NCBI RefSeq assembly: GCF_035046485.1
Contig: NC_085137.1
Location: 481,424,252-481,488,251 of the forward strand
Length of the DNA stretch: 64,000 nt
DNA from: Aedes albopictus
Taxonomy: Eukaryota; Arthropoda; Insecta; Diptera; Culicidae
Direction of reading: 5' to 3'
The notes beneath the pieces are model-generated. The model searched no databases and was not told the DNA's origin. It saw only the letters and a list, made by a program, of their open reading frames with translations. Positions 17,622 through 59,044 of the stretch are shown piece after piece. Position numbers and translations under genes: made by a program. The first letter of the stretch is position 1. Each line of letters starts with the position of its first letter.

Positions 17622-18542
17622 TTACCATGGATACACGCATTGCCCGAACTCTCTCATGATGTTTGCCGTGATATCCTGGACGTTGTACTTGATCAGCTCT
17701 CCGCAAAACTGATTGCGATCCATGAAAGCTTCGTACTGGTAGAAATGCAGAAAATCGGAGACCAGCGACAGTTCCATGTTGATCCTCATGAGCTCCGAAT
17801 GGGCGTCATTGAAATACTGTAATTAAATGAGGTGTGTTAAATTCAGCAACACAAGCCAGAATGAGTTATGGGAAGGAACAATTACCTCATTGATGCAGTT
17901 GGTAGACGTAGTAGCGCAAATCTTCAGCTGTTTGATCAGGGAAATAAAGTCATTCTTTATCAGAGTGAACATTTCCAGCACAGTAGGGACAACCGTTGGG
18001 ATGGTATCCACCTCCGTCTGCAGACACGCTCCGAACTTTGTCAACTGGTTGGGCAGATTGGTGGTAACACTGGTGTATTGCAATGTACAAGATTCTGCAT
18101 TTGCTTGATACCATAACGAGTTGAGCAGAGAGCTGTAGCTTTGCATGATCTGGTCCATGGTTTGTTGGAGTTCGCTGTTCAAACGGGACAGGTCGTTACC
18201 AATGGCTGTGATCACCATCTGTTCGGCGTAATAGAATTGCCTTGTGAACATATCAACGTTGTTTATCACGCCGAACATGTTGGGTTGCGTTTCACCGTAG
18301 GTTGCGTTCAACACTGTGTAGGTGGTGTTGACGTACTCCGTGAGGCCGTCGACTTTTGGCATAATTTTGTTGCGGGCGTTGTTAAGGTTTCTGTAGTGTG
18401 CAGTCATGATGGGTCCAATGCTTTTCAGACTTGCGGCCATTACATCTAGTCCTTCCGATCCGATAGATAGGGAAGCGTACATCGTGAAGACTCCTTCGCT
18501 CAAGAAGCCTAGCATGCAAACTACCGCCAAATAAAGCTTCAT
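17622..18542 (-). CDS. Secreted six-cysteine protein, gene A (subfamily 1)
   Basis: Function unknown. Exon 1 is 18542-17886, exon 2 is 17816-17622, with a 69-bp GTAATT...TTACAG intron; product 283 residues. I start at the ATG of MKLYLAVVCMLGFLSEG, a signal peptide, rather than the ATG 14 codons earlier, because the paralogues start here. The mature chain is mostly predicted helix, with NTTY and NATY glycosylation sites. Cysteines at about 152, 173, 209 and 216, then 257 and 279 in exon 2. The intron is phase 0, between CINE and YFND. Ends GQCVYPW. Close paralogues are genes B and C on the same strand; genes D and E share the cysteine and intron plan. Possible membership of DUF725/TsetseEP is a guess from length and cysteine pattern. 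Confidence 0.88.
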
Positions 18543-18598
18543 CGTGGGGTTGGATGTTCTGCTGTAGAGGAAGTCGGTTGGCACACTTGATAGGAACT

Positions 18599-18637
18599 AC
18601 TGTCGAACGTCTGGTGAAAAGGGAGAGTATTTATATA
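18599..18637 (-). promoter_or_regulatory. Core promoter of gene A
   Basis: On the minus strand TATATAAATA (18637-18628) lies about 34 bp before ACAGT (18603-18599), an initiator-like site, and about 86 bp before the ATG. The other four family members have the same layout. Confidence 0.65.
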
Positions 18638-18639
18638 GC

Positions 18640-18968
18640 CTGTGAAACATTCATGAAGAAACAATGAAGTTTGTGTATTTTAGCTTGCTGGATATTTTTG
18701 TACGGTATCAGGTGATGGAGGATGGCAGTTTGAAAGAATGCTTAGTCTTACGTACGTCATAAGTAGGGGGTTCCATAAAATATTCCGGCTATGAAACAAT
18801 GAAATTCCTTGTTGTAATAAAAGTTAAAACTGTTCCAACCTCGTGGATCTAATCGGAAAACATATGATGGAATTTTTTTTACAGTAGTGGATTTTTGCTA
18901 CCAAGCATAATTCAAACGTACTCATATCCGTATTAATTTGGATACAAAAACACGTTAACACTTCCACT
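18640..18968. other. Upstream region of gene A
   Basis: No gene is recognised. It holds the likely distal promoter of gene A; no clear binding motif is identified. Confidence 0.4.
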
Positions 18969-19050
18969 GGCCGGGGCCCATGGTGTAGTGGCTACACGTT
19001 CACTTCATAACTGGATGGTCATGGGTTCGATCCCAGTCTGAGTCCCCATT
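18969..19050 (+). mobile_element. tRNA-derived SINE head
   Basis: CCATGGTGTAGTGGCTACAC (A box) and GGGTTCGATCCCAGTC (B box) are spaced as in a tRNA. It is different from the other SINE heads in the window. The 3' end is unclear because the long repeat at 19101 follows. Confidence 0.6.
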
Positions 19051-19100
19051 CAACACTTATAATTGTATTATAAGAAAAACACGTTTATAGTGACTAGTTT

Positions 19101-21256
19101 TGCCTTTCTCGTACACTAAGTGTACTGGAAAGGCTATATGTTCACTCCAAAAATGACTTTTTGATAGAAGGCCCGGAGGGTCGAGTCACATATACCAATC
19201 GACTCAGCTCGACGAATTGAGGTGATGTCTGTGTGTATGTGTGTGTACAAAAAACTCACATCACTTTTTGGCAGTAAACCTCAACCGATTTTAATGACCG
19301 ACAGTTTATTCGACGTGGCATATAGTCCCATTGTTTCCTATTGAAAATGGTTCGGATCGGTCCAGCCGTTCCGGAGTCATGGCCATTTAGGTGTTCCGGA
19401 CCGGTACCCCTAGGAGGGACCGTACATGAAAATGCAACAAACCCATGTATGCGACATATCAAACCACGGAATTTTCGATCACCTGATGAATGGTAAGCAG
19501 GAAAATAGTCTCAGACCATATTAGAACCGGTAGTGTTCCGGAACCGGTTCCGGATGTCCCGCCGGAAGTAGCCAAATATAAAAGAGAACCAAACCCATGC
19601 ATGCGACACATCAAACCACGGCATTTTCGATAATCTGATGAACGGTAAGCAGGAAAATAGTCTCAGACCATATCAGAATCGGTAGTGTTCTGGAACCGGT
19701 TCCGGATGTCCCGCTGGAAGTTGCCAAATATAAAAGAGAACCAAACCCATGCATGCGACACATCAAACAGCGGCATTTTCGATAACCTGATGAACGGTTA
19801 GCTGGAAAATAGTATAAGACCATATCTGAACTGGTAGTGTTCCGGAACCCAGGGGCCATATAGCCGAGGCGGTAAACGCACGGGTATTCAGCATGACCAT
19901 GCTGAGGGTGACGGGTTCGATTTCCGGTCGGTCCAGGATCTTTTCGTAAAGGAAATTTCCTTGACTTCCTTGGGCATAGAGTATCTTCGTGCCTGCCACA
20001 CGATATACACATGCAAAATGGCCATTGGCAGAGGAAGCTCTCAGTTAATAACTGTGGAAGTGCACATAGAATACTAAGCTGAGAAGCAGGCTTTGTCCCA
20101 GTGAGGACGTTACGCCAAGAAGAGAGAGAGAGAGAGTGTGTTCCGGAACCGGTTCTGGGTGTCCCGCCGAAAGTGGCCAAATATAAAAGATAACCATTTT
20201 CGGTAACCTGATGGACGGTTAGCAGGAAAATAGTATCAGACCATATCTAAACCGGTAGTGTTCCGGAACCGGTTCCGGATGTCCTGCCGAAAGTGGCCAA
20301 ATATAAAAGTGAACCAAACCCATGCATGCGACACATCAAACAGCGGCATTTTCGATAACCTGATGAACGGTTAGCACGAAAAAGGTATCAGACCATACTT
20401 GAGCTAGTAGTGTTCCGGAACCGGTTCTGGGTGTCCCACCGGAATTGACCACATATAAAATTGAACATAACTCATTCATGCGACACATCAAACAGCGGCA
20501 TTTTCGGTAACCTGATGAACGGTTAGCAGGAAAACGGTATCAGACCATATCAGAACCGGTAGTATTCCGGATCCGCTTCCAGTGACTCCAGATGGATGAA
20601 TGCAAGCTTTTTAAGAAGTGATAGAGGATCATAAATGGTGATAAAAATGTATACCCATAGGCTCTAAAACCATGCAATATGGGTATATCTGGTATTGGGA
20701 CGAAGTCTGGAGTCCAAAAATGTCGAATAAAATATCCAAGATGGCGACCAAAATATTCAAGGTGGCGTCTCAAAATTCAAGATGAAAGCATAAACATCTA
20801 GATGGCAGCTGTTTAATGGAGGTTTAGACTCTAAAACCGTTCAATATGGGTATATTTTGTATGGTGAAGACAGCCGGAGTTCAAACATAGCTACCAGAAT
20901 ATCCAAGAAGGCGTCTCAACATTTAAAATGGCGGTTGATGGAGTTTTGTGCTCTAAAACCATTCAATGTATCTGGTATGGGGAAAAAGTCTGGACTCTAA
21001 AAAATAGCGACCAGAATTTCCAACCTGCCGGACATTAATCCTAAATGGCGGGTAAAAATTCCAGATTGCGGCTGTTTTTTAAGAGTTTTAGGCTCAAAAA
21101 TCAAAAACCAGATAAACGATGATGCCATGAAATGGATTTCTGTTAAACGTATGAAAGTGCGATATTCATCAACACGTCACTTGAGTTGTGTTGAATGTGT
21201 TTTCGAAGGCACGAGAAAGGCGTCATCACCGCTAGGTGGATTAATTAGGGTTTTTT
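19101..21256 (+). repeat. Long composite repeat family, copy 1
   Basis: Begins TGCCTTTCTCGTACACTAAG with a small hairpin (GTACACTAAGTGTAC) and ends near GGCACGAGAAAGGCGTCATC, so the outer ends are short inverted repeats. Zone 1 holds GTGTGTGT and CTCAACCGATTTTAATGACC. Zone 2 is a tandem array of units of about 150 bp with GTTCCGGAACCGGTTCCGG, CATGCGACACATCAAAC and GATAACCTGATGAACGG. Zone 3 is an array with AAGATGGCG and CTAAAACCATTCAATATGGG words. A Feilai-type SINE is inserted at 19850-20137. Other copies: 38069-36340 (minus) and 53701-57185 (plus). No coding function is supported. Confidence 0.85.
19850..20137 (+). mobile_element. Feilai-type SINE (288 bp) with 13-bp target duplication
   Basis: The tRNA-like head has ATAGCCGAGGCGGTAAACGC (A box) and GACGGGTTCGATTTCCGG (B box). 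The body includes CTTGGGCATAGAGTATCTTC and GGAAGTGCACATAGAA, ending in AAGAGAGAGAGAG. GTGTTCCGGAACC flanks both ends (19837-19849 and 20138-20150). I recognise the body as the Feilai family of Aedes aegypti; that name is from memory, the insertion itself is seen in sequence. Confidence 0.88.
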
Positions 21257-21780
21257 TTTGCTTTAGTATTGTGATTTTTAACATAAGCTAATGTTTACCT
21301 TCCTGTTTGTTTACCATTTCCTGGAAAATACCTTCCTCATTTTCATCTTAAATAATTATGTAGATGGTGTCGTTTACCTTTGCCTTTTATATATATTATA
21401 CAAAGTTTTCCATAACTAGACATAATGATTACATCTTTTTAAGGAGAGTGCCTGATCTGATGTTTTTTTTCTCGATATGAGTTCTGTGTATTTTAACAGA
21501 GATTTGGGCGCTCTAAGGCGCATCTGAATGCGAATCAAATGTTCCACTTCTAAAGTTACCCGGATAAAAAACTACCATTCATTACATGGTAAATATTATT
21601 ATCGTATTTTCACGATGTACGGTTTTATTGTTCACAAGAAAACACACAGTAGATATATTGTTACTTTTTACAATAGATAGCAAGCCCACATAATTCGTAC
21701 AATATAAGTGAACATTAGTTTTGTTAGTGACTAATTGATTCGATTGTTTTTCAATTGTTCTTTAATAATTTAATACAAAT
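21257..21780. other. AT-rich stretch, nothing recognised
   Basis: T-rich and A-rich sequence with no supported frame or repeat boundary. Confidence 0.5.
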
Positions 21781-21989
21781 TTAAGGACAAGGTATTTGGA
21801 GTACATAGCTCAAAATTTCTAGAGCACCGTTTTGTAGAACCGTTGAACAGATTTTGATGGAAATGCATCACGCTAATTGTTCAGTGGTTGTCAACAGCGT
21901 GATGCATTTTAATCCAAATCCGTTCAACGGTTCTAGAAAACGGTGCTCTAGAAATTTTGAGCAATGTACTCCAAATACCTTGTCCTTAA
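21781..21989. mobile_element. TTAA-bounded palindromic MITE (209 bp)
   Basis: The ends TTAAGGACAAGGTATTTGGA and TCCAAATACCTTGTCCTTAA are exact complements, and the arms of about 95 bp pair closely (GAGCACCGTTTTGTAGAACC against GGTTCTAGAAAACGGTGCTC). TTAA at both ends suggests a piggyBac-like TTAA duplication. The 70-codon frame across it is not a gene. Confidence 0.8.
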
Positions 21990-24900
21990 TATCAGTGAAA
22001 ATTAATTTAAGTTGTTTTTATACAGTTGGAAAAGTGCCTGGAAAATTCTCATGGACTTTTTATTGAAAAAGAGTTTATTTCTCAATTACAATTAAAAATA
22101 ATTCGTAACAAATAAATAACAATAAATATTTTTGTTGCTTGGACCATGTTGTTCTACTCTGTATAAGTTTTCGTTGAGGTTTTCGTTTTAAATTTGAGTA
22201 CACTAGATGTTTCGGTTATCTAATGTTATTCGCTAAACTACAATGACTTGTACTAGTCCTATTGTTCACGTGTTGATTAGAGAACTTGCTATTGATGATC
22301 CGCAGAGTAGAGTTTTTACACCGGCAGACTTACGAAGCACTAGACTGAGAACTAGTCATACTTTGACTTCCGTTGACACACGCGTACCGAACAGGGAGGT
22401 GATATCTCAGTGAATTGTGAACGATTTATGGTATGGATCATATGACCTAAGGTCTGACTTGTGATATTTGGCCATTGTTTGAAATGATTGATGATAGATC
22501 TTATCAACAGCTGCCAAGCAATACATACCAGGCAGACATCAGAGTGTTTGATTCTTATCATAAAATGTGCATATCATTCTTACGACCGCTAATGCTTGTG
22601 AATGCTGGATATTAATGTTAGCGGGAAATATAAAAGCGAAAACTGATTACAAATAACAACAAATATTATTAAATTTTCATTATAACAACGTTTCATTTGA
22701 CACCATTAATTGTATTTGTATTGTAAGATCAATGAAAAAACATTAGGATGTATTGTTTTCTTTTGAAAATTGCCCTAAAAATGTCTCATAAAAACACAAT
22801 ACAGTCTATAGTTTTCCGCGGAAAAATGTATGAAAATTTTCTTAAAAATTTTATGATTAAGATACATAACGACAGATAACGACCACCGTTTTTTATTGTA
22901 AAGTGCCAATTACCATTCGCCGAATGGCTTATAACAATAAGGGTGATGGTGAGTGTGCTGTGCAAATTATAATACGTTTAATGGTGAATAATTTTCGAAA
23001 AAAATGGTGTTGTACCAATAAAAATTATCGTATTTTTATGATATTTTTTTTATCAGGGTGGGTTTCTTACATATACTTTAAAAAAATCCATTTTCGGTGA
23101 AAGCCATTTCTAAAGTTCTTCACACACCGACGATACTTGTTTTATTCAATCATGTCCAATATGTTCTTTTTGTTCGGCAAATGTTCGGAATTTCCACCTT
23201 CATAAATTGTTTTAGCTCGTATCATGCGAAGTTAAAGTTTAGAAACCGTTGCCAACGAGCTAGAGCACATTTGGCACCCCCTGTTCCAGAATCGCGCGCG
23301 CTGGATGTAATGCAGCACGCGCGCACTGCATTGTCCGAATATCTCTAGCTGGGCAAGTTGTTCCCAGCCCAGGATATAGGTATGATAAAATGGAGACCAT
23401 ATGCGTGCATGCCGCCATTGGGCGCATGTAAAATGTACGCATATCGCCTCTACTTCAACATCCTATTCAACATCTTATACGAGCACTGGTTGACTAGGAT
23501 TTTATTATGGGCTTGGCAAAAATCCAAGGCACATCTTCTAATTATATATAGCTTACCCTGAAGCGCGGTTCAGCATCATCGTCAACCCGAAGATCGAATC
23601 TTATTTGGTCGAATTCAGCAAAGAAAACATCAACGGCAGTTCAGAACGTGCCCCAAGCCATATATTTTGATTTTAAAAATTTTGATTCCATCGTGTTTAT
23701 CAGACGTTTTCCGATCGAAAAAGTTTAACTCCCCAAGGTAATTTGCGTCGTTCCTGAGATATAGCGTTTTTAAGAAAAAATATTCATTTTTTTTCATATA
23801 ATGTATCATATAAAATCAGGTGCAGTTTACAAATTTCGCAAAAAAAACATTATTCGATGCCATATAAAGACGTTTTGTGCTGATTTAAACAATATCAAGT
23901 ACAATAAGGATTAAAAAAATGTGACAGTGTTGCCAGTTCATCTATTATGAGTCTGTCGTAATGGACTAGCATAACCTGTTGAACTAAAAAATGTATCTAT
24001 TGAGATCATCAATTCTAAACAAATTTCATATATTTTAACATTATCTGAAGTGCTGCCAAATGTAATATTTATTGTAGAAATCTTAATTTTATGAGAACTA
24101 TAGTATAAAATCTAATTAACAGGCCAAAAGTATTTTTTTTTTCATTTGGGTTTAGTACATTTGGCAACATCGACGTAAAATATACTCAGGAAAACATTTG
24201 ATGGATGTATTTATAAGCAACAGTGCTGAAAATGTCATTTCAATTTAACTACATTCAATGACCCACAGCTAATTTCAAAAGCTGAACCTGAAAATATGGA
24301 ATATGATAAAACATGAAGTATGATATCCTTTGGAATTAGATAATATTAGAAACTACGCACCGTCGCGCAACTGGTAACTCAACTTTTCAGTATTTTTTTT
24401 TTTATATTCGAAGGTTCAACTCCTTATAAAAATCCCTGTAAAAATATCTTTTGATTAATTTTTACGGCAGTGTTGCCAAGTATGCTAGTATTCCGTGGAA
24501 ACGCAAACAATAGGTGCGGGGATGCTTAGTATTGCGTTTACCCTTACTGTGAATGCATCACCCCTATGAGGGGATCGCAGAATAATAGATCATGTCCTTT
24601 ATTGTCCCAGGCAGAGAAGTGAAGAACAGTGCTGAGTATTGTGTTGTCTCTTGATGTGATTGCATATGGTATGAGTTTTTGTTTGTTCTTCGTGGCGATG
24701 AATGAAATAAAATTTCTGAGTGAAATGGATTAGTGACGTTTGCTCCCTAGAGGGATGGTAACTACTTTTATTAGGCTTTTTTAGCATGGAAAAGAGATCG
24801 GTTGTACGCGAAGGTTGATTCCGGTAAATCAAATCGATTGTTCGATCAATTATAGGTGACTCCCAGATCGACAATGTATCGTATCATATTAAGGATCGGT

Positions 24901-25368
24901 ATATTCGCCTCACTCCATTCATATTCACTCCTCTTTGCTGAATCGAATCGAGAAAGATGCAGCAAACGAATTGTCGTAATCAAACACGCAACCCCATCAC
25001 CAGTGGGAAGCCATGCGCAAGTTGCTTGACATGGATATTCGTTGCCGTTCGTCGCAGTTTGGATCGCAAGCGAATGAAAGAAAGGCGAATGGTGAAGAAT
25101 GCTGGTGAGTGATCGAAGTGGCTGCTGTCGTAGCTGACAAGCAAACACACAAACTAAAGCGACAATCGTTCGCTGCGACCAATCACGGAGTAACAATCAT
25201 AAATTGTGTTGCCATCTATCAGGGGGCTGTTATGGTCTTCTTGTTTTCTTACCCCGCATTAAAATTATGCTGCTGTGTTCAAAGATAGGTCGTCAGCTTG
25301 AGCCCTACGCTTGAGCCGCTGTTATGCTGGCTACGAAAACTTTGCATTGGTGGGATGCTCATACTCAT
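21990..25368. other. Gene-poor interval of about 3.4 kb
   Basis: AT-rich with no supported coding frame, promoter or long repeat. Short GC-rich words (GCGCGCGC, CACGCGCGCACTGC) occur at 23290-23330. From 23930 onward TGTTGCCA/TGGCAACA words recur (about 23930, 24163, 24470), hinting at scattered MITE ends. Frames up to 116 codons near 24846-25196 overlap each other on one strand and show no motif. Confidence 0.5.
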
Positions 25369-25497
25369 GCAGTGTTGCCAATTATGCTCGATATGTATAA
25401 AAAAACATAAATCATTTGTTTTCATTTGGTGTTATCTATTTACGGAAGCTTTCGTATAAATTAGATGTTTACAATAAAAATGACATGTGTGGCAACA
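25369..25497. mobile_element. Small MITE with CAGTGTTGCCA ends
   Basis: CAGTGTTGCCA at the left and TGGCAACACTT at the right are inverted repeats of about 10 bp around 110 bp of AT-rich DNA. Target duplication is not clear. Confidence 0.5.
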
Positions 25498-25630
25498 CTT
25501 CCGTCTACAACATTGTAGTCATTGAATAAAATGACAATTGAAAAGAATTTCACAATAGATACAATTTATATTTTAACAGTTTATCCTATTCGTTTGCAAT
25601 AAACGTATTTTTTTATTGCTAACTATCGAA

Positions 25631-27760: not shown

Positions 27761-27789
27761 AATGGAAGCTTTTGAAAAAGCTTGCCCTA

Positions 27790-28359: not shown

Positions 28360-29100
28360 TAACATTTTCGGATGAACCTGATGTCTTTACTTGTAGTTTT
28401 GATTCTTTGGCTCCGACACGGTGTATTGTAACTATAGAATCGGTTGAGTGGCACTAAATAGATTTGCAGTTTTGCTATTTAAAAATCTTGGCGGGATATT
28501 ACTGTAAAGTTTGTTCCATAAGTGGGTCGTGCGTCGTATAATGAACCAAAGTGTTTCAGGCCTATCATTTTGACCTCTTCTCTTCTGAAATGCTTAGAAC
28601 GCATTGTGGATCATCACATCCATGATGTTCATCTCCCTAACGTGCCTCTTCATGTGAATCAACATGCCTACCAATCTGGTCAGTCCGCTGTGACTCTTTT
28701 ACACAAGGTTGTTTACGATATCGAGAAGGCATTCGCTTCGGGTGTTTTCTTAGATATCGAGGGTGCCTTTGACAACGTGCCTTTCGATGCCATATTGGAA
28801 GCCGCACGGGGTCATGGTATATCTCTAATGATTTCCAACTGGATTCATAAAATGCTCAAAAACCGAAATCTCTTCTCGATATTGCATCGAGCGGCGATTA
28901 GGAAACTGAGTGTTTGTGGATGCTCCCAGTCCCAAGGGGGAGTCTTGTTACCGCTTTCGTGGAATCTCGTAGCAGATACGCTATTGAGGCCACTCATTAA
29001 AAGCGGTTGATTCTGAAATGAATTTAACTGAACATCGGCATCGGATCGTATGGCAGTGGAGGAAGCATTATGACCTGCTCTCTGAAGAGGAAGACAGCAA
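28360..29100 (+). pseudogene. LOA-like reverse transcriptase relic
   Basis: The frame 28522-29010 holds CFRPIILTSSLLKCLERIVD, NQHAYQSGQSAVTLLHKVVY and FLDIEGAFDNVPFDAILEAA (catalytic Asp motif A), plus SQGGVLLPLSWNLVADTLL. The YADD box expected next is not found; the sequence decays after 29010. Extra residues in CSQSQGG and a stop confirm decay. LOA clade (Lian-like) is inferred. Confidence 0.75.
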
Positions 29101-29347: not shown

Positions 29348-30270
29348 TTAGACGTATGGTGGATACATGCATTGGCTGAACTTCATCGACAAGTTCATGG
29401 TGATATCCTGCACATTTTGCTTGATCAACTCTCCGCACAGCTGGTTGCGATTCATGGCGTCGTACTGGTAGTACTGGAGCAGGTTAGCTGCCATGGACAG
29501 CATATAGTTGATGTTGCTAAGCTCCTGGTAGATGTTGTTGAAGTACTAAAATCAGTTGAGAAACGTTTATCTGTTAATTGGTCATGAAAATTTGAAGACT
29601 ATAAAAATGTTACCTCGTTGATGCAGTTAGCGGAAGTGGTAGCGCAGATCTTCAGTTGTTTGTTCATTGAAGTCAAATCACTCTTTGCCGTAGTCAGGAT
29701 TTCCTGCACAGGAGCAACCACAGTGGGAACAGTATCAACCTCAGTCTGCAGGCAGGTTCCGAACTTGGTCAGCTGGGTGGGTACGCTAGAGGCCTGATCA
29801 GCCATCTGTGTCACACAGGTTTCCGCATTTTGTTGATAGGCGTACGAGTTGAGCAGGTTGTTGTAGTACTGCATCATCTGGTCCATGGTTTGTTGGAGAT
29901 CGTTGTTCAAATGGGACAGATCGTTTCCAATGGCCGAGTTGACCTGCTGTTCACCGTAGTAGAACTGCCTGGTGAACCACTCCAGGTTCCACATCATGTT
30001 CACCATGTTGGGCTGTGTGGCTCCATAGGAATCGTTCAACGCTTTGTAGGTGGTGTTCACGTATAGCGAAAGGGAATCGATTTTCGGCATGATTTTAGTG
30101 CGGGCACTGTTCAGGTTCTTGTAGAAAGAGTTCATAACGGTTCCGATGCTTTTCAAGCTGGCCGACATGGAGGTCAAGCCTTGCGATCCGATGGAGATGG
30201 ACGTGTACATCGTGAAGACGCTTCCGCTCAGGAAACCCAGCACACAAACTACGGACAACCAAAGCTTCAT
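29348..30270 (-). CDS. Secreted six-cysteine protein, gene B (subfamily 1)
   Basis: Function unknown. Exon 1 is 30270-29614, exon 2 is 29545-29348, with a 68-bp GTAAC...TTTTAG intron; product 284 residues. Starts MKLWLSVVCVLGFLSGSVFT (signal peptide). Conserved words with gene A: SISIGSQGL, KIMPKIDSL, YVNTTYKALN, FTRQFYYGEQQV and NDLSHLNNDLQQTMDQMMQY. Cysteines at 152, 173, 209 and 216 match gene A exactly; the last two, in NQLCGELIKQNVQ and FSQCMYPPYV, keep the 21-residue gap. The phase-0 intron lies between CINE and YFNN. Start, splice sites and stop are intact. Secreted or lumenal location is inferred from the leader. Confidence 0.9.
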
Positions 30271-40881: not shown

Positions 40882-41822
40882 ATGAAGTTTTTCCTCGTTC
40901 TTGTAGGGGCTGTCTGCCTTGCAGGCTCCATCCACGCCCAGTCTACCCTTGGCACTACCGTGACTAATGCCATCAACACTTCCAAGGCCAGTGTGAACAC
41001 AGCGATTCAGCAACTGAACAGCACCATCAACGCTGCCGATCAATCCGTTGCGACAGCATACACCCAATTCACCCAGTCCTTGGCAGCCTTGTACCAGACG
41101 TACTACACCCGTTTCCAGAACTACACCACGATCGATTTGAGCACTCTCAGCCAAACCATCCAGAATTTGCCAACCATGATGAGCCCACCTCAGCCAATCC
41201 AAGACTGGAGCACCAATCAGATCTTCACCGATGTCCAAAGCAGTGTTCAGCAGGTCGAAACTACCCTCAACGCAGCTGTCCAGACTATGACCAACTCCTG
41301 TGCGCCACCCTGCGCCAACGCTGCCAAGGTTGCCACCTGCACAACCAAGTGGGGCCCTAAGCTGTCGACTGCCCCGATCACCATTGACCGCATCACCGAC
41401 TGCGTCACCGCCGAATTGGTTCGCTTCTCTGACATCGGATCCAACATGGCTTCCATGTACACCAACCTGCTCACCAGTGCTTCGAACTACCTCAAGGTTG
41501 TGGACGTTTGCGACACTCCGGCTGCCGATGTCCTGAACAACCCATCCCCGATGTACGGATCTCCGTCTATCCAGTGTCTGAATACTGTAAGTTTATTGTA
41601 CGTTGGAAGGTCTTTTCATCATCTAACTACCTGTATTATTCTACCCAACAGTACCTCCAGAGAATCAGCTACATGCCGGTCAACTCCTACGTAGTCGACA
41701 GCATGCGTTATCCCCAGACGTACCTGATCCAATTCCGTGTGCAGCGTTGCGCCAAGCTGGTTGAGCTGGATGTCAAGGACCGTGTCGCCAAGGTGCTGGA
41801 AAGTTTCCAGAGCTGCCTGTAA
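40882..41822 (+). CDS. Secreted multi-cysteine protein, gene D (subfamily 2)
   Basis: Function unknown. Exon 1 is 40882-41586, exon 2 is 41652-41822, with a 65-bp GTAAGT...CAACAG intron; product 291 residues. I start at MKFFLVLVGAVCLAGSIHAQ, a clear signal peptide, not at the in-frame ATG 40 codons earlier, which lies before the TATA box. The chain is rich in Thr, Ser, Asn and Gln, with NSTI and NYTT sites, then SCAPPCANAAKVATC. Cysteines at 153, 174, 210 and 232, then two in exon 2 (RC and SCL), copy the spacing of subfamily 1 (20, 35 and 21 residues between); C140 and C144 are extra. The phase-0 intron follows QCLNT, before YLQR. Gene E is a close paralogue. Confidence 0.9.
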
Positions 41823-45878: not shown

Positions 45879-45989
45879 TTCTCCCCCCCGTGAAACTGGT
45901 AACTAAATATCTTCTTATGATCTTTCAAATCTTTGTACATTTTGATTACAATGTCCCGCATTAAATATCCCCAATAACACCTTTCTGTG

Positions 45990-46403
45990 CCACTGTGCAC
46001 TGTAATGCGCAAAGCAGCCCCGCCGGGGTCGAAAACAACACATCTAGAAACAGCGTTGCGGGACCTCTACAAGCGATCGCAGGCACTGGCAGACCGCCTG
46101 TGGAAGCGATGGGTAGCGGAGTACGTGCCAGCAATCAACCAGCGTACCAGGTGGCACGCAGAGGTACAACCGATCAGCCAGGGCGACCTGGTGTATATAG
46201 CGGACGAAGGAGCGAGGAAGAGTTGGACGCGAGGTGTGGTCAGCGAGGTGTACCCAGGCCCTGATGGACGAGTACGGCAAGCACTGGTCAAGACGGTGAA
46301 AGGGGAGTTCAGGCGTCCGGTGGCGAAGCTGGCTGTGCTGGAGGTTCAAGAGCGTAACTCTGGTGCTGCTGGAGGATCCCCCCAGAATTACGGGGAGGGG
46401 GTA
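45990..46403 (+). pseudogene. BEL/Pao integrase C-terminal fragment
   Basis: The frame reads ALRDLYKRSQALADRLWKRW, then VAEYVPAINQRTRWH and GDLVYIADEGARKSWTRGVV, and RRPVAKLAVLEV. This is the C-terminal integrase domain (DUF5641 type) of BEL/Pao elements. It is followed by ACGGGGAGGGGGTA, a polypurine tract, directly before the LTR. The rest of gag-pol is missing. Confidence 0.82.
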
Positions 46404-46954
46404 TGTACGCACCACCCAGCATCGAAAACCCGTCAGCAGCGAGCGCCCTGCTGTGACGACTAGGTGCAGAAAAGGTAGGCGAAAATTTGGTAGCTGAATT
46501 CAGACAGGACAGGACGAGCTAAAATGTAAATATAAATAAGAAGAGTTGTAAACAGTGAAGTAGAGTAGCCATTGCAAGTAGTGAAGATTGAATTCCCTTA
46601 CGGACTGTGATTTGCAGTTTAAAAATAATTTTACGTTGAAGTGGAGAGAAAGCCAGCACAAATTATTAGTTTGTGATACGATTTGATTTGAGGTATTTCG
46701 GAAACTAGCTGTAAGTAAATAAATTTCTTGAATTAGTTTGATTTTTATTCATGATAAATTGTAGTGATTCCAAAGCGAGTCCTGTGCAGCGAAACGCAAC
46801 CTGAAAAGGAGAAAGGGGTGAAACGCACTATAAAATGTAAGTTGGAAATAATTATAAGTTTGTAAGCGGTAATTAATAGAATACATTTCAGTTTCAAGCT
46901 GTTGTAACAAAGTACACTGCTGTGGAAATTTTATTTCAAGAACTGGTCCGAACA
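46404..46954 (+). repeat. BEL/Pao LTR (551 bp)
   Basis: Starts TGTACGCACCACCCAGCATC right after the purine tract and ends GAACTGGTCCGAACA at the AGCTT duplication. It holds AATAAATTTCTTG (about 46719). Seen as a single 3' LTR; no partner LTR is present. Confidence 0.75.
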
Positions 46955-50870: not shown

Positions 50871-51179
50871 TAAACAAAATGATTACTTATCTTCGCCGGT
50901 TGAAAGTCAAAATAGTAGTGGAAGGAAGGGGTAACTCCATGCACCAGAAAGGCGACCATTTCCAATGTGAAAACTTTCAAGCGATCACCGTTTGGCCACC
51001 TACAAAGTGCTACTCTAGATCATCTTTCGTCGTTTGTCACTTAAAACGAATGAGTTCATGTGAAGTTATTCATCGACGGCCGAACGACAACGGAACTGAT
51101 CTGATTTGAATGAATAGTGCAAATATTTCACTGTAAGCCACTGCACCAACGAGTCAGCCTCGTCGGACATTTTTTTGCG
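50871..51179. other. Intergenic, downstream of gene C
   Basis: Nothing recognised; the 76-codon frame at 50879 has no motif. Confidence 0.4.
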
Positions 51180-51185
51180 TTTATT
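51180..51185 (-). terminator. Poly(A) signal of gene C
   Basis: AATAAA on the minus strand, 52 bp beyond the stop codon. Confidence 0.7.
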
Positions 51186-51236
51186 TCATCTATATCCTGC
51201 ATATAACATAGTGGGGAATGTTGTTCACATTCACAT

Positions 51237-52143
51237 TCACATTGGGTACATACACTGAGACGACTGCACCATCAAATCATTCGCCTTATCCTGGACGTTT
51301 TGTTTGATCAAATTTCCACACAGTTGATTGCTTTCTCTGAATGTATACTGGTAGCTATAGAGCAGGCTGTACGCCATGTATAATATCTGGTTTATATTGT
51401 TTTGCTCGTAGGTGATGGTATTGAAGTACTGAAAAAAAAACCAATCATCATTTAAAGCAGTTCCCAAACATATGACATATTACCTCATTGATGCAGTTGG
51501 TAGAGGTGGGAGCGCAGATCTTCAGTTGTTTGTTGAGCGAAATGAAGTCACTCTTGGTCAGCTTGAAGATGTCCTGCAAAGGAGCCACTAGAGTTGGAAC
51601 GGTGTCCACTTCGGTCTGCAGACACGTTCCGAACTTGGCCAGTTGATCTGGAATAGCGGCGGCTGCTGCTGCGAGCTGCGAGGTACAGGTTTCCCCATTT
51701 TGTTGATAAGCATAGGCCATGATGAGCTGATTGTAATACTGAAGCATTTGGTCCATGGTGTCTTTTAGCTCGTAGATCTGAGCGCTCAGATCGTAGCCCA
51801 GATGATAGGTGACCTGCTGTTCACCATAGAAGAACTGCTTGCCGAACCACTCCAAATTCATCATCACGTTACCCATGTTCTGGGATTGCGAGACACCATA
51901 GGAATCGTTCATCGTTTTGTAGGTGGTATTCACGTAGTCGACAAGGTTGTCAATCGTTGGCATAACTTTGTTGCGAGCATTGTTGAAGTTCTTGTAGAGA
52001 GAGTTCATGACGGGTGCGATGCTTTTCAGGCTGGCCGCCATGGAATTCAGGCCTTGCGATCCGATGGAGATGCTCGAGTACATGGTGAAGACTCCTCCGG
52101 ACAGGAAGCCTAGCACACAAACTACGGATAACCAAAGCTTCAT
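51237..52143 (-). CDS. Secreted six-cysteine protein, gene C (subfamily 1)
   Basis: Function unknown. Exon 1 is 52143-51484, exon 2 is 51428-51237, with a 55-bp GTAATA...TTTCAG intron; product 283 residues. Starts MKLWLSVVCVLGFLSGGVFT (signal peptide). It shares SISIGSQGLNSM, NNARNKVMP, YVNTTYKTMNDSYGV, YGEQQVTYHLGYD and KDTMDQMLQYYNQL with genes A and B, and has one extra exon-1 residue (SQSQ). Cysteines follow the family plan: GETC, FGTC, KICAPTSTNC, then NQLCGNLI and SSQCMYPM. Phase-0 intron between CINE and YFNT. The C-terminus is two residues shorter than gene B. Intact. Confidence 0.9.
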
Positions 52144-52194
52144 CGTTGCAAACGCTGATCTGCGGTAGAGATGCTGGAATCGGGTTAAACAGGG

Positions 52195-52232
52195 ACTGAT
52201 GTCGAATGGGTTGAAATGTGTGAGTATTTATA
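52195..52232 (-). promoter_or_regulatory. Core promoter of gene C
   Basis: TATAAATA (52232-52225, minus) and TCAGT (52199-52195) about 33 bp downstream; the leader is about 55 bp. Confidence 0.7.
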
Positions 52233-53203
52233 GCAAGTTCGGTAACTGATGAGAAACAGTAAAGGCAAACATATCATGAGGAATGTCGGATGACGTAAAC
52301 TAAGAGGGCAATTGATACTTTTGGCAAAGAATTAGAATAGCTACAACATCATCAAACAGGTTTGATTGAGCTGCCAAGATGATCGAACAACAGAATAGGA
52401 CATCTCATCGGAGTTTAATGAATTTCTTTGTTGTCGTAGTAGTAAACAAAACCACGGGGAAGCACATTTTCGGTAGATCTCAAAATTTTCAACAACATTT
52501 CCACCTTCTTTTTTGCCAGTCATTCAGTTCTATAATACAATCACGTCATTGTTACATGAGCTGAACCGATGGTTTATCAAGATTGTGATAATAATATGGT
52601 GTTGCATCTTTACATACCTAGGGTTTTAGGTAATGTCATGTTTTCCATAAGTTAAAAGATAATCGGGTTAAGTACTGTTCTTTCTAGTTCTACTAACGAA
52701 TTCCATCCTTTGACAGACACGTATTCCGACCTCAACTGTTAAGTCGTCTCGTACTTGACTCTTGTTTCATATTTTATCTAAACAGCCAAGCCCATTCTTT
52801 GAGCCGCTATGGTTTTTTTTTTAAAGATTTTCAAAATATTATTGGATTGGATTTAAATATTCATTGGATAAGTGTTTCCCGAAACTTGTCGGAGCGATCG
52901 TCCCCTGGAAGCTGGCAAAACAAGTTCCAACCCCCTAAGTTTGAGTTTGTGAACAAACATTCAAAGCCATGGATCAGTGGTCCCCAAACTATTTTCTATT
53001 GCGTTTTTTTACAATTAATATTTATTCAATTTCCAGCTTGCCATTTCAATTACAGAATTGTAAATAGGGTAGAAATCTACTGCGCCATATGCGCTAATTC
53101 CCGTCATATCGGACGGAAAATAGCCAGTAATTACAGTCATTCTAACTTTCCCTTGCCAATGGCTCATCAGTAGACTATCAATAATCAGCCTCTATAGCAC
53201 TTT
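52233..53203. other. Interval upstream of gene C
   Basis: No supported gene; the 124-codon frame at 52799 shows no motif or promoter. Confidence 0.45.
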
Positions 53204-53320
53204 ACCCTTCAGGACGCGCGCCGTTGTAAAAAGTACAACACTACCAAAAAACCTCACACGTCGTATACAGCGCGAGCGTGGTGCAGTTTCAGTTACTTGA
53301 TGGCGCGCTTCCTGAAAGGT
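53204..53320. mobile_element. Small MITE with ACCCTTCAGGACGCGCGCC end
   Basis: The right end, complemented, is ACCTTTCAGGAAGCGCGCCA, giving inverted ends of about 19 bp with two mismatches over 117 bp. An inner GC-rich word CAGCGCGAGCGTGGTGCAG is present. Confidence 0.6.
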
Positions 53321-53827
53321 TTTAACCTTTCATGGCGTTTCATGGCGTTTGAGAAGGTTTCAGAGAGGTTTGAGGGTAAACAGCACTGAACCAGAACACA
53401 AACAAACTCTGAGTGGAGACATGGAGGACACCTGAAGGCGGTAGCTGACGAAACGAGCCTTCATGTACATGTACATACGTCCATCCATCTCGAAGTTATC
53501 TCCGATGGGCGTACCGCGAAGGAAAAGAAGAGAAAAGGTAAGGTTTAAGTTTGGCATTCTTTTAGCTGCAAGAATTATAAATTAGTTACATTAGGGGTAT
53601 GATTCAGATTATTTATGGTCAACTACTGCATATTGACAACAATTAACAGATTGATTTGAAAGCACTATTACGGTGGATCTCCAGATTTTCCAAACACATT
53701 TTTGCCTTTCTCGTACACTAAGTGTACTGGAAAGGCTATATGTTCACTCCAAAAATGACTTTTTGATAGAAGATCCGGAGGGTCAAATCACATATACCAA
53801 TCGACTCAGCTCGACGAATTGAAGTGA

Positions 53828-53907
53828 TGTCTGTGTGTGTGTATGTGTGTATGTGTGTATGTATGTGTGCGTGTGTGTGTGCGTGTGTGTGTCTGTATGT
53901 GTGTGAG
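53828..53907 (+). repeat. GT microsatellite
   Basis: GTGTGTGTATGTGTGTATGTG-type run (shown in part) of about 80 bp inside copy 3 of the long repeat; copy 1 has a shorter run at about 19229-19247. Confidence 0.85.
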
Positions 53908-54979
53908 CAAAAAACTCACATCACTTTTTGGCAGTTAACCTCAACCGATTTTAATGACCGGCGGTTCATTCGACACGGAATCTGGTCCCATTGTTTCCTA
54001 TTGAAAATGGTTCGGATCGGTCTAGCCGTGCCGGAGTTATGGCCATTTAGGTGTTCCGGACACGTACCCTTGGAAGGGGCCATACATAAAAATGTAACAA
54101 ACACATACATGCGACACATCAAACTACGGCATTTTCGATTATCTGATAAACAGTTAGCAAGAAAACAATCTCAGACCATATCTTTACCGGTAAAATTCCG
54201 GAATCGGTTCCGGATGTCCCGCTGGAAGTGGTCAAATATAAGTGATCCAAAACTATGCAAGCGACACATCGACCTGCGGCATTTTCGAAAACTTGATGAA
54301 CAGTTAGCAAAAAAACACTCTCAGACCATATCTGAACCGGTAATGTTCTGGAACCGGTTCCGGGTGTCCCGGCGGAAGTGGCCGTATATAAGAATGAAAA
54401 AAAAGCTTGCATGCGGCACATCAAATCACGACTTTTCCGATAACTTGAGGACTGCTAATCTAGGAAGTAGGCTAAGACCACATTAGGGACTGCCAATAGT
54501 GCCGAAACTAGTTCCGAGTTTCCCTCCAAAAGCGGCTAAATATAAAATTGAACCAAACCCATGCATAACAGCAAAGCGCGGCTTTTTTGATAGCCTAATA
54601 AACTTAGCAAGCAACAGGTTCAAACCAAACCCATGCATTGAGGTATCGTGGCTTTTTAGGTAACATGATGAACAGTTGCAAAAAAAAAATAGACGCAAGC
54701 CATATCAGTGTGTTTCGGAACCGATTACGGGTGTCCCGCCAGAAATGGTCAAATGTAAAACAAAACCAATACATGCGACATATCAATGACTTATTCGTTA
54801 ACATGATAAACGGTTAGCCAGCAAATAATCACAGACCATATTTGGGGGAACCGGTAGTGTTCCAGAGCTGGTGATGAGACGAGTAACTCGCCAGAAGTGG
54901 TAAAATATACAGGGAAGCCAAACCAGAGCGGCGTTTTTGATAATCTGATGAACGGTCAACAAGAAAATAGTCTCAGGCC

Positions 54980-55485
54980 CAAGGATGGAAATCTAGTGAT
55001 CATGATCAGATCTCGAATGTGTCGCGGTTGAAAGGCATCGCGCGATCATAGCAACAACGATAACATTTTGTCGTCAAGCATCATAACAAACTACGGTCCG
55101 AGAAGAATGATTCGCTCGGTATGTGCAGGCGCGATGCGATCGCTATCATGAAGTTGAAATGATAAATTCGCGATTTCATTCACTTTTTGAGCATTCTTAC
55201 TTATTTAACTTCAAGATATGCTTATGAATGTATTATTTCTAATAATGAATGCGGTTTACGGGTACATTAAGTGGCCTAAATTGTGATGAATAAAATTTAT
55301 CACGACTTGTAACATGATCCGATAACGGGTCATCACGCGATAAAGCGTGCATCAGATGCTTTGATTGCTCTGTGATACGAGTACGATGTGAAGTGTCGGC
55401 ATCATGCTACTGCAAGAACAAGGCTATCTTGGATTATTCGTATCCTGTATCATTTATCGCTTGAAGTGATTTTCTTCCATCCTTG
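54980..55485. mobile_element. hAT-type non-autonomous element, copy 2 (506 bp)
   Basis: Ends CAAGGATGG and CCATCCTTG; exact 8-bp duplication CTCAGGCC at 54972-54979 and 55486-55493. It is opposite in orientation to the copy at 6727-7231; shared words include CATGATCAGATC, GATAACATTTTGTCGTCAAG, CCGAGAAGAATGATTCGCTC and TGATCCGATAACGGGTCATC. Confidence 0.88.
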
Positions 55486-56039
55486 CTCAGGCCACATCTA
55501 GAACTAGTAATAGTATTTCGGAATCGGTTGCGGATGTTCCATTAGAAGCGATTAAACAGAAGTGAACCAAAATCATGCATATGCGACACATAAAATCGTG
55601 GCGTTTTCAAAAATTTGCCGAACGGTTAGCGAGAAAATAACCTCAGATCACTTTAATATTCGGCTTTTTAGATAACCCGATGAACAGTTGACAGGAACAT
55701 ACTCTCAGACCATATTTGCGATAATCGAAATCGATCCCGCCGGAAGTGGACAAACGTTAAATTGAATAAAACCCATGCAAGCTGCACATCAAATATCGGA
55801 ATTATAAAAGTGAACAAAATAAACGTCAAAGCGATAAACGTTGGGTAAGATTATAAGTAAAGAAATGGTGAAAGTCTTCATATATGCAAGAGAAAAAAAT
55901 CGTGACCAAAGCGATATCATCAAATCACACCATTTCAAATTCCTGCGGTGTAAATATATAGTAGGATGGATCAACGTTTTATGGAAAATTTATAATTTGA
56001 TCGCATCAACACCAAATTAGTTATTTAGTAGTTATTTCC

Positions 56040-56400
56040 ATACAAAATTTTATGCAATGTTTTTTTTTTCATAATGCAACCACTTGAGTTGCATAATGTT
56101 CATAATGCAACTCAAATGAGTTGCATTATGAAAATTATGCAACTATTTTTCATTATGCAACTCATTTCGGTTACATAACCCGAGCAGAAGGAAATAACAA
56201 GTGAATAACATATCAAGGTATTGTACATTTCGTACAATAACGCAGCAATAACAATTTTAGGTGTTAGAGCACATGTTGTTCTTCGTATGGTATTTGTAAG
56301 GTATGCCCTTCTGCTCGGGAACGAACATGTTTGAAAAAATGGCCATTATAATATCAAAAAGAGTTAGATAAAATAAAAATTATGATACTGAATTGCATCA
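56040..56400 (-). repeat. TTGCATAATG palindromic repeat, copy 2, interrupted
   Basis: Reverse-oriented copy of 27575-27760, with CATTATGCAACTCATTT, ATGGCCATTATAATATC and ATTATGATACTGAATTGCAT in matching order. A 141-bp MITE (56179-56319) splits it. Confidence 0.65.
56179..56319. mobile_element. Small MITE with CCCGAGCAGAAGG ends (141 bp)
   Basis: Left CCCGAGCAGAAGG and right CCTTCTGCTCGGG are exact complements. Copy 1 of the host repeat gives the empty site (CATAATGAAC against CATAA/AACGAAC here), supporting a short AA-type duplication. Confidence 0.8.
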
Positions 56401-57330
56401 AGAGATTTTTCAATCTTCAATCTCCTTTTGCTTCTAAAATTACAGCTCACAATTTGGGTGCGGCTGGTTGAACCCTCGCTCTTCTCAATGCGATTGAAAT
56501 TTGAATGGAAAATTTCCATTTTTGGCATTTTTCTCGTAAGGAGGTCAAATTTCACATGGATCGTGTTACCAATTATTATACATACAATATAGCCTAAAGT
56601 GTGCTATAAAAACTTTGTCGAAGATCACAAAGTGCATTATTTTTTAGTTCTGTTTTGCTGTTGAACATAACATTGGAACATTTTTTTAAAATTTGTATTT
56701 CTGTATATTTTAACTTATGCAAATTCTACACTTATAACATCGGAATATGTATCACACTTAATTCAGATTGCCGGGATATCAGCATATTTCCATTCTTTTG
56801 CCGAGATTTGCACAGCCGAGTAATCAGCAAACAACAATTTTGCTGAGATCTCAGCAATTTTGCCAGTTCATTGCTGAGCTTCGGCAATCGTTTTGCTGAG
56901 AGTCAGCTAACAAATGTCATTTTTTGCTGGGATATCAGCTGATAGTTTTACTGAGCAGACGGCTGTGCGCGTTTTTGCCGAGCCCGCAAATCTGTTTTGA
57001 GTGTGTACCACCAAGTAGTTTCCCAAATCGATGATGGCTTTGATAAAATTGTTGCTATTCTATATAAAGGACTCTGGAACATTTTGGCTAACGTCGACGG
57101 CAAGATCATGAGTATTTATTCGACGAGAAAGGCACTATCACCACTAGGTGGATTAATCTGGGTTTTTTCTTCCATACGGCAGCTTAATATTACAATCAAA
57201 TCTTTGTTTCAGTTGTTAGGTGAGTGTTTTTGTCACAATCGTGGTAAACGGCGGAGGGACACTGGCTTAACTACGAGACAAAAGATTTTAAGCTAAGTCA
57301 GTACTGGAAAACTATACCTTAAAATTAAGT

Positions 57331-57767
57331 GGAAACTTTTAGTGGCTACGCAGTCTTTATTCTTAAAACGGGTTTATTGTTTACCCAACGTTTCGGCACT
57401 TAGGGATGGTGCCTTCATCAGGGGGAAAATAATGTTCTCGTTTTGTCTCTAGTGTTTCGGCTAACTTTAACTGTCCTGATTTTAGTTTTTTGGTACATGA
57501 CTGGGTAACACTTCGTGAACCTACGTGGACTTTTTACTAATGGCGAGTTTTGCGCCATTAGTAAAAAGTCCACGTAGGTTCACGAAGTGTTACCCAGTCA
57601 TGTACCAAAAAACTAAAATCAGGACAGTTAAAGTTAGCCGAAACACTAGAGACAAAACGAGAACATTATTTTCCCCCTGATGAAGGCACCATCCCTAAGT
57701 GCCGAAACGTTGGGTAAACAATAAACCCGTTTTAAGAATAAAGACTGCGTAGCCACTAAAAGTTTCC
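57331..57767. repeat. 437-bp near-perfect palindrome with hammerhead-like cores
   Basis: The arms of about 210 bp begin GGAAACTTTTAGTGGCTACG and are complementary throughout to a centre near 57540-57560 (GGCGAGTTTTGCGCC). Each arm carries CTGATGA, then a GGCAC/GTGCC hairpin, then GAAACGTTGGG, on the plus strand at about 57678-57714 and on the minus strand in the left arm. This order equals the conserved core of a hammerhead ribozyme (CUGAUGA, stem II, GAAA), as found in Penelope-like element ends. One extra A precedes stem II, so activity is uncertain. Confidence 0.8.
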
Positions 57768-58003
57768 AGTTAAAGTAACAGTCGTTCCCTTAAAAGCTTA
57801 AAATTAAGTTTATTCATCAATCAAAGTTTGGATATGGGATTGACGTAAATGATTATTGAATGGAACAAAAATCTATTATTGGATGCGGCTCATAATATCA
57901 AAAATATATTCACGAGCCCATCCAGAAAAATTCCCCTTCAACTACGTCAAACGATCGTTCACAGAAACAATGCTTTCATTCAGACAGTCGCCAGCTTTCG
58001 AAA

Positions 58004-58041
58004 TATAAAAACTTCGCAGCCAGCTTCTCTCAACCATCAGT
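58004..58041 (+). promoter_or_regulatory. Core promoter of gene E
   Basis: TATAAAA at 58004-58010 and TCAGT at 58037-58041, 33 bp apart as in gene D; the leader is about 60 bp. Confidence 0.75.
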
Positions 58042-58099
58042 AAGTATCAATCCGTTGGCGTTACATTCCCTCAGCTCCTCAACGGAACATCCGCAAACC

Positions 58100-59044
58100 A
58101 TGAAGTTTCTCCTCGCTCTTGTTGGTGCCGTCTGTTTGGTTGGCGGAATCCATGCTCAAACCTCTACCCTTGGCACTACGGTTACTAGCGCCATCAACAT
58201 CTCCAAGAACAGCCTTTCGACTGCAATCCAACAGCTAAATGGCACGATCAACATTGCCGATCAGTCGGTGTCGACAGCATACACCCAGTTCGTTCAGAAC
58301 GTGGCAGCCCTGTACACGTCGTACTACAACCGTTTCTCCAACTATACCACCATCGACTTGAGCGGTCTCAACCAAACCATCTGCAATTTGCAAAACACCA
58401 TGAGCCCACCCCAGCCAATTCAAGATTGGTCCACCACTCAAATCTTCACCGACGTTCAAGCCAGTGCTCAGCAGATCGAAAGTACCCTCAATGCAGCTGT
58501 CCAGACCATGACCAACTCCTGTGCGCCACCCTGCGCCAACGCTGCCAAGGTTGCCACCTGCACAACCAAATGGGGCCCTAAGCTGTCGACTGCTCCGATC
58601 ACCATTGACCGCATTACCGACTGCGTCACCGCCGAACTGGTTCGCTTCTCTGACATCGGATCCAACATGGCTTCGATGTACAACAACCTGTTGACCAGTG
58701 CATCGAACTACCTTAAGGTGGTGGACGTCTGCGACACTCCGGCTCCGGAAGTGCTAAACAACCCATCCCCGATGTACGGATCTCCGTCTACACAATGTCT
58801 GAATACTGTAAGTACATTTTCCTGTTCAAAGAACGTCGAATCAATTAATGTTCTGTAATTTTCTGTTCAACAGTACCTCCAGAGAATCAGCTACATGCCG
58901 ATCAACTCCTACGTAGTCGACAGCATGCGTTATCCCCAGACGTACCTGATCCAATTCCGTGTGCAGCGTTGCGCCAAACTGGTTGAGCTGGATGTCAAGG
59001 ATCGTGTCGCCAAGGTGCTAGAAAGTTTCCAGAGCTGTCTGTAG
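58100..59044 (+). CDS. Secreted multi-cysteine protein, gene E (subfamily 2)
   Basis: Function unknown. Exon 1 is 58100-58807, exon 2 is 58874-59044, with a 66-bp GTAAGT...CAACAG intron; product 292 residues. Starts MKFLLALVGAVCLVGGIHAQ (signal peptide), not at the in-frame ATG 15 codons upstream, which is in the leader. NGTI and NYTT glycosylation sites. From about residue 135 to the end it is almost identical to gene D (exon 2 differs at six of 171 bases), while the N-terminal third and the intron differ more. It has one cysteine not in D (NQTICNLQ), the SCAPPC pair and the six family cysteines. Phase-0 intron after QCLNT. Intact. Confidence 0.9.

What the first reader, a model, noticed from the sequence alone, without database searches (positions are those of the whole stretch)
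17622..59044. Five secreted-protein genes in two dissimilar sets form one family by cysteine spacing and intron position
Genes A, B and C (minus) and D and E (plus) share little obvious sequence. Yet the gap between cysteines 1 and 2 is 20 residues in A, B and D, the gap between 2 and 3 is 35 in A, B and D, and the last two are 21 apart in A and D. The only intron is phase 0 and sits exactly three residues after cysteine 4, before a Tyr (CINE|YF and CLNT|YL). Matching at all these points by chance is unlikely. I know of no described function; DUF725/TsetseEP is a candidate label only.
Basis: partly seen in the sequence, partly recalled or inferred. Interest (0 to 1): 0.75.

Follow-up and report, generated by a model that had tools for sequence, protein, structure and literature searches.

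The report
Mosquito family of disulfide-braced secreted proteins
Five genes in an Asian tiger mosquito chromosome, in two very different-looking sets, belong to one uncharacterised family of probably secreted helical proteins with a shared pattern of cysteines; their job is still unknown.

Summary
All five are two-exon genes of Aedes albopictus; A, D and E are identical to annotated but uncharacterised proteins. The stated cysteine gaps and the phase-0 intron three residues after cysteine 4 occur in all five; the intron also in two further copies just past the window. Set 1 (A, B, C) and set 2 (D, E) are related: BLASTP B/D E=2e-5 with all six cysteines aligned; best cross-set HMM scores 23.0 and 24.4 bits, against at most 10.8 for shuffles that keep the cysteines, though 4 of 23 real rows fall within the shuffle range. 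Separate AlphaFold models of middling confidence give the same helix order with cysteines in corresponding places. New here: the spacing is near-palindromic (set 2: 21-36-22-36-22), which fits an antiparallel helical hairpin stapled by three nested disulfides. That pairing is inferred, not measured. DUF725/TsetseEP is not supported by any profile match, though remote kinship is not excluded. All named relatives are Aedini. Function was not determined; my leading guess, weakly held, is a luminal structural or barrier protein.

The parts
17886..18542 (-). gene A (set 1), exon 1, 219 codons
   Evidence: protein identical to P0008, LOC109399259
17817..17885 (-). gene A intron, 69 nt, GT-AG, phase 0
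17622..17816 (-). gene A exon 2 including stop
29614..30270 (-). gene B (set 1), exon 1
   Evidence: best relative P0001, 89% identity
29546..29613 (-). gene B intron, 68 nt, phase 0
29348..29545 (-). gene B exon 2 including stop
40882..41586 (+). gene D (set 2), exon 1, 235 codons
   Evidence: protein identical to P0017, LOC109429061
41587..41651 (+). gene D intron, 65 nt, phase 0
41652..41822 (+). gene D exon 2 including stop
51484..52143 (-). gene C (set 1), exon 1
   Evidence: 9 mismatches to P0006, LOC109399260
51429..51483 (-). gene C intron, 55 nt, phase 0
51237..51428 (-). gene C exon 2 including stop
58100..58807 (+). gene E (set 2), exon 1, 236 codons
   Evidence: protein identical to P0019, LOC109399265
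58808..58873 (+). gene E intron, 66 nt, phase 0
58874..59044 (+). gene E exon 2 including stop

Best explanation
The five genes are paralogues of one family of secreted all-helical proteins, restricted to Aedini as far as named relatives show, made by tandem duplication in one interleaved chromosome-2 cluster of seven copies (five in the window, two just beyond). Each protein is exported by a signal peptide and forms a long helical bundle. Its C-terminal half is most likely an antiparallel helical hairpin held by three nested disulfides (C1-C6, C2-C5, C3-C4), which explains the near-palindromic spacing; the two sets differ chiefly in the C3-C4 turn (7 against 22 residues). Shown: gene models, homology, intron, cluster, spacing. 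Predicted: helices. Inferred: secretion and disulfide pairing. Guessed (about 35%): the proteins work as stable, protease-resistant luminal components in the gut (peritrophic matrix or proventriculus), diversified by duplication and gene conversion.
For: Gene models match database proteins. Cross-set homology: E 2e-5; hhalign E 1.4e-5 over 58 columns; best 23.0 and 24.4 bits; top of 900 and 1400 Cys-held shuffles 7.6 and 10.8; 31.7 against at most 23.2. Intron at C4+3 in 5 of 5 window genes, in both further copies F and G, and in 9 of 9 unspliced relatives, which read into Val (codons GTN) right after C4+3 (some of the nine are near-copies of cluster genes, so not independent). Helix order and Cys placement match: set 1 H30-82, H87-145, H149-160, H165-212, H214-280; set 2 H3-78, H87-99/H109-138, H147-162, H169-176/H179-210, H231-241/H245-290. 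C5 and C6 lie 22 residues apart in one predicted helix in both models, so C5-C6 pairing is unlikely. Distances from the C3/C4 midpoint in D are 68/47/11 and 11/47/69; such symmetry arises in 0.12% of random six-Cys sets, a post hoc figure. Both sets occur in Ae. aegypti and Armigeres, and each set is one side of a 100/100 branch.
Against: With cysteines masked, cross-set scores fall to at most 4.8 and 6.4 bits; 3 of 9 set-2 rows and 1 of 14 set-1 rows score within the range of Cys-held shuffles. So most of the sequence signal is tied to the cysteine columns. On alignments trimmed of the signal peptide hhalign gives probability 22% (local) and 4% (global). Models are middling (pLDDT 71.7 and 77.1, pTM 0.58 and 0.69) and low around the turn; set 1 shows only a one-residue break there. 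Symmetry is looser in set 1 (39.5 against 43.5-44.5). No tissue data for the family: only LOC110675455 in a list of differentially expressed genes of adult females (PMC10085034). The gut guess leans on DUF725/TsetseEP proteins, kinship to which failed the profile test.
Confidence: 0.55

Rival explanations
1. The family is a remote, unrecognised branch of the DUF725/TsetseEP family (PF05267), whose mosquito members are peritrophic-matrix proteins.
For: PF05267 has 121 positions, near the length of the C1-C6 span (127 residues in A, 137 in D). Two mosquito members, AAEL010338 and AGAP009313, are in peritrophic-matrix proteomes (PMC5865745 Table 2, passage).
Against: PF05267 not listed at E<=10 for A-E or four consensus sequences, or at E<=0.1 for eight relatives. 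The genome search with PF05267 gave two chance places only, but it showed no counterpart of AAEL010338 either, so that arm is uninformative.
Confidence: 0.25
2. The proteins act in reproduction (seminal fluid, spermatheca or eggshell) rather than in the gut.
For: Tandem, fast-evolving, lineage-restricted secreted families are typical of reproductive tracts (general knowledge, not from a call). Acidic mature chains rich in N, Q, S and T.
Against: No tissue data found. AAEL014239, AAEL014240 and AAEL014241 are not named in the main text of an Ae. aegypti eggshell study (PMC4234484, term search only); its supplements were not seen.
Confidence: 0.3
3. Set 2 is a threefold repeat of a two-cysteine unit (period about 58) rather than a palindromic hairpin; set 1 lost part of the middle unit.
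For: Spacing 21,36,22,36,22 is also periodic. The second Cys is followed by similar motifs (CVTAEL, CLNTYL); anchored comparison of units 1 and 2 gives p=0.008 over 13 residues, 0.019 and 0.044 over two 31-residue frames.
Against: p is 0.22 over the third 31-residue frame. In the models C5-C6 lie in one helix while C1-C2 span a break.
Confidence: 0.15
4. The two sets are unrelated and converged on similar cysteine spacing.
For: Only 13-18% identity; signal largely in the cysteine columns.
Against: Same intron position and phase, interleaved cluster, best scores above Cys-held shuffles, nearly equal length upstream of C1 (151 and 152 residues in A and D).
Confidence: 0.05

Closest known systems
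DUF725 / TsetseEP (PF05267; mosquito AAEL010338, AGAP009313)
   Same: Secreted dipteran proteins; domain length near the six-Cys span
   Different: PF05267 not listed at E<=10 for any window protein; cysteine pattern and fold of DUF725 not compared here
Uncharacterised Aedini proteins: Ae. aegypti AAEL014239-241, LOC5572897, LOC110675455, LOC110675456; Armigeres LOC134214246-250, 252, 260 and LOC134208922; Ochlerotatus LOC135705048
   Same: Direct homologues; 13 of 14 set-1 rows and 9 of 9 set-2 rows keep the spacing
   Different: They are the same family; databases name them only as uncharacterised
Baculo_PEP_C (PF04513), weak match
   Same: 16 of 18 members match at E<=10, best 8.3e-5; P0016 4.3e-7, and the database's own annotation of P0016 lists PF04513.18 and PF26039.2
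   Different: No match seen (first member) or 84 reaches the curated cut-off of 38 bits, and matched positions shift between members; I read it as generic long-helix similarity. PF26039 did not appear in our scan of P0016 at E<=0.1 and was not followed further

Membership tests
DUF725/TsetseEP (PF05267) | Match to the Pfam profile (cut-off 22 bits) | tested here: not met
   Not listed at E<=10 for 5 of 5 window proteins or 4 of 4 consensus sequences or pieces; not at E<=0.1 for 8 of 8 relatives.
DUF725/TsetseEP (PF05267) | Same cysteine pattern and fold as DUF725 | not tested
   No DUF725 sequence or structure was at hand
DUF725/TsetseEP (PF05267) | Peritrophic-matrix location of mosquito members | not testable with these tools
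   Localisation of the window proteins is unknown; DUF725 location from a PMC5865745 passage
Single family set 1 + set 2 | Detectable sequence homology between sets | tested here: met
   weak without the cysteines
Single family set 1 + set 2 | Intron phase 0 at C4+3 | tested here: met
   5 of 5 in the window, F and G beyond it, 9 of 9 unspliced relatives
Single family set 1 + set 2 | Same predicted helix order | tested here: met
   middling confidence, compared by helix boundaries only, no superposition possible
Single family set 1 + set 2 | Same three disulfides | not testable with these tools
   Model coordinates are not given
Known solved fold | Clear structural match in the PDB | tested here: inconclusive
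   0 of 1122 and 0 of 478 Foldseek matches at E<=0.001; best VIA-align Z for set 1 11.7 (6tgz, rmsd 5.6, 231 aligned; 8ugc_A, rmsd 3.1, 150 aligned), for set 2 13.2 (8ugc_A, rmsd 2.2, 128 aligned), common for helical bundles

The most novel reading that the evidence does not exclude
The two interleaved sets are co-evolving partner subfamilies: a short-turn and a long-turn version of one disulfide-ladder helical rod that assemble with each other into an Aedini-specific extracellular matrix, which would explain why both sets persist side by side in Aedes and Armigeres.
Probability: 0.1. Interest if true: 0.6.

Novelty: new member of a known kind. Interest (0 to 1): 0.38.

Why it matters
It joins two groups of uncharacterised proteins of Aedes mosquitoes, which carry dengue and Zika viruses, into one family with a testable architecture, and gives a concrete reason (a stapled hairpin) for the spacing. 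It also shows that intron position and cysteine spacing can reveal kinship at 13-18% identity.

Tried and rejected
DUF725 in the own genome: (E<=0.001) gave nothing; (E<=10) gave two places whose open frames look like retroelement or repeat sequence, not this kind of gene. NCBIfam on 18 members: scattered weak matches (25 of 30 families shown), none convincing.

PDB sequence searches with B and D: best E 0.45 and 0.66. Fold searches of both models: generic helical bundles (cytomegalovirus IE1, BAR domains, designed repeats); no function read from them, and a missing match is not taken as proof of a new fold.

Literature: searches of main texts for AAEL014239-241, LOC109429061, LOC109399259, 260 and 265, LOC5572897, LOC110675455, LOC110675456, RP20_CCG006026, AAEL014238 and six neighbouring LOC numbers found five papers, all: one lists LOC110675455 (PMC10085034), four hold only AAEL014238, which is not of this family. 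A wider term search gave nothing relevant from its listing. Supplements were not open. Synteny with AAEL014238, guessed from adjacent numbering: the nearest PF00282 places on C2 are over 20 Mb away, so dropped. The threefold-repeat reading was weighed and kept only as a rival.
Full report
What is there. The window is C2:481424252-481488251 of a 1.34 Gb genome. Proteins A, D and E are letter-identical to Aedes albopictus proteins LOC109399259, LOC109429061 and LOC109399265, and the contig length given for them equals that of C2, 518,725,454; so this is Ae. albopictus chromosome 2. Five two-exon genes are present: A, B and C on the minus strand, D and E on the plus strand. Their coding introns are 55-69 nt, GT-AG, phase 0. 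Each protein begins with one strongly hydrophobic stretch (10-residue mean hydropathy 2.8-3.1) and has none as strong later (at most 1.6), as expected for secreted proteins (inference; no signal-peptide program was run). A TATAAA-like box lies 84-96 bases before each ATG (read by eye).

Check of the claim. The spacings C1-21-C2-36-C3 and C5-22-C6 hold in all five proteins, and the intron sits three residues after C4 in all five. Across relatives they hold in 13 of 14 set-1 rows (window genes B and C counted among the 14; P0015 has 22 for C1-C2) and 9 of 9 set-2 rows; 11 of the 32 retrieved proteins, ten incomplete and one near-copy of D, were left out of that count. Random placement of 8 cysteines reproduces the two shared pieces in 6.5e-5 of 200,000 trials. 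Two qualifications: D and E have two and three more mature cysteines upstream, and the stretch around C4 differs (7 and 40/41 against 22 and 36).

Are the two sets one family? B against D by BLASTP gives E 2e-5 with all six cysteines aligned. The set-1 HMM scores set-2 proteins 2.7-23.0 bits (9 rows) and the set-2 HMM scores set-1 proteins 8.1-24.4 bits (14 rows). Shuffles that keep every cysteine in place reach at most 7.6 (of 900) and 10.8 (of 1400); free shuffles reach 7.4 and 9.1. So 3 of 9 and 1 of 14 real rows lie inside the shuffle range. Removing the signal peptide leaves best scores of 18.0 and 22.7. Masking the cysteines drops the best scores to 4.8 and 6.4 bits (all), so the cysteine columns carry most of the signal. 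Profile-profile: E 1.4e-5, probability 80%, over 58 columns (that set-2 alignment included unspliced rows); on trimmed alignments E 0.00097, probability 22%, score 31.7 against at most 23.2 in two sets of 150 column shuffles, and probability 4% in global mode. Added to this are the shared intron, nearly equal lengths before C1, and interleaving in one cluster. I hold common ancestry at about 0.95.

The cluster. Searches of the whole genome with B and with D found only this cluster: 8 matching stretches for set 1 and 7 for set 2, exons counted separately; the tool says its counts for large families are lower bounds. Two more genes lie just past the window end: F (set 2, plus, C2:481495866-481496747), frameshifted in this assembly while the closely similar P0022 from another source reads open through that stretch, and G (set 1, minus, C2:481500104-481501013). 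Both have the intron at C4+3. Nine of nine unspliced relatives read straight into Val (codons GTN) after C4+3; some are near-copies of cluster genes, so they are not nine independent cases. In the tree of 23 proteins each set is one side of a 100/100 branch, and both contain Aedes and Armigeres, so the split is older than those genera (inference; P0014 and P0015 sit on long branches). Armigeres LOC numbers alternate between the sets (246, 248, 250 set 1; 247, 249, 252 set 2), which suggests the same interleaving there (inference from numbering).

Gene conversion. D and E differ at dS 0.72 over codons 1-130 but 0.21 over codons 131-293 (Fisher p 2.6e-5 on rounded counts, split chosen after looking), while the intron is only 65% identical and codons 201-236 have dS 0.45. 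Patchy gene conversion of the cysteine half is the likely cause.

Architecture. Models built from separate alignments (12 and 9 rows) give pLDDT 71.7 / pTM 0.58 for A and 77.1 / 0.69 for D. Both are all-helical in the same order: two long N-terminal helical stretches (the second broken in D), a short helix with C1, a helix with C2 near its start and C3 at its end (broken once in D), then a final helical stretch with C4 at its start and C5 and C6 further on. Confidence is low around the turn (64 for residues 211-220 of A; 51-62 for residues 201-250 of D), and in A only one residue breaks the helix there. The spacing is nearly symmetric about the C3-C4 midpoint: 68/47/11 against 11/47/69 in D, and 60.5/39.5/3.5 against 3.5/44.5/66.5 in A. 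A hairpin stapled by nested disulfides explains this, and explains why the sets can differ in turn length; the intron then falls at the start of the return helix. Random six-cysteine sets are as symmetric in 0.12% (set 2) and 1.2% (set 1) of 500,000 trials, a test framed after seeing the pattern. The pairing itself is inference.

Known families. PF05267 is not listed for the window proteins or consensus sequences at E<=10, or for eight relatives at E<=0.1; the scan's filters drop most matches above about 0.1. The genome-wide PF05267 search is not informative. In mosquitoes, the DUF725 proteins AAEL010338 and AGAP009313 are in peritrophic-matrix proteomes (PMC5865745, passages); AGAP009313, called Tsetse EP, is one of the three highest expressed genes of the Anopheles gambiae proventriculus (PMC9113746, passage) and is microbiota-regulated (PMC5448818, passage). 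Tsetse EP itself is found in the tsetse peritrophic matrix (PMC3998921, passages). These are the only ground for my gut guess, and it is weak because kinship was not shown. Weak PF04513 matches run through the family (16 of 18 members at E<=10) but none seen reaches the cut-off. No close structural relative stood out.

Function. No call gives tissue or function. LOC110675455, a set-2 gene of Ae. aegypti, is listed among uncharacterised genes with lower expression in Wolbachia-carrying mosquitoes; the RNA came from pools of five adult females on day 4 after emergence (PMC10085034, one passage and the sample section). That shows only that it is transcribed in adult females. I put about 35% on a gut luminal role, 30% on a reproductive role, and the rest elsewhere.

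Noticed in passing
window 40882-41822 and 58100-59044: Genes D and E are much closer in their cysteine-bearing half (dS 0.21) than in the first 130 codons (dS 0.72), a sign of patchy gene conversion.
   Followed up: partly
L018 7615-8496 (C2:481495866-481496747): A third set-2 gene just past the window is frameshifted in this assembly, while the closely similar P0022 from another source reads open there; pseudogene, polymorphism or assembly error.
   Followed up: partly
window 29348-30270: Gene B is only 89% identical to its nearest database protein P0001 of the same species, more than I would expect between alleles, yet the two pair in the tree and the genome search showed no further close copy.
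   Followed up: no
window 60632-63171: A long degenerate tandem array of 12/24-base units (about 59-60% matches) with strong negative GC skew.
   Followed up: no
window 19438-19849, 20195-20580, 54111-54392: Arrays of a 150-152 base unit that looks related in all three occur between the genes.
   Followed up: no
window 4061-5599: A UDP-glycosyltransferase gene (PF00201, E 2.2e-79 for the open frame 4550-5599) lies upstream of the cluster.
   Followed up: no
window 11583-12299, 28522-29010, 45987-46463: Likely remains of transposable elements: endonuclease-like (PF03372), reverse transcriptase (PF00078) and DUF5641 (PF18701) open frames.
   Followed up: no
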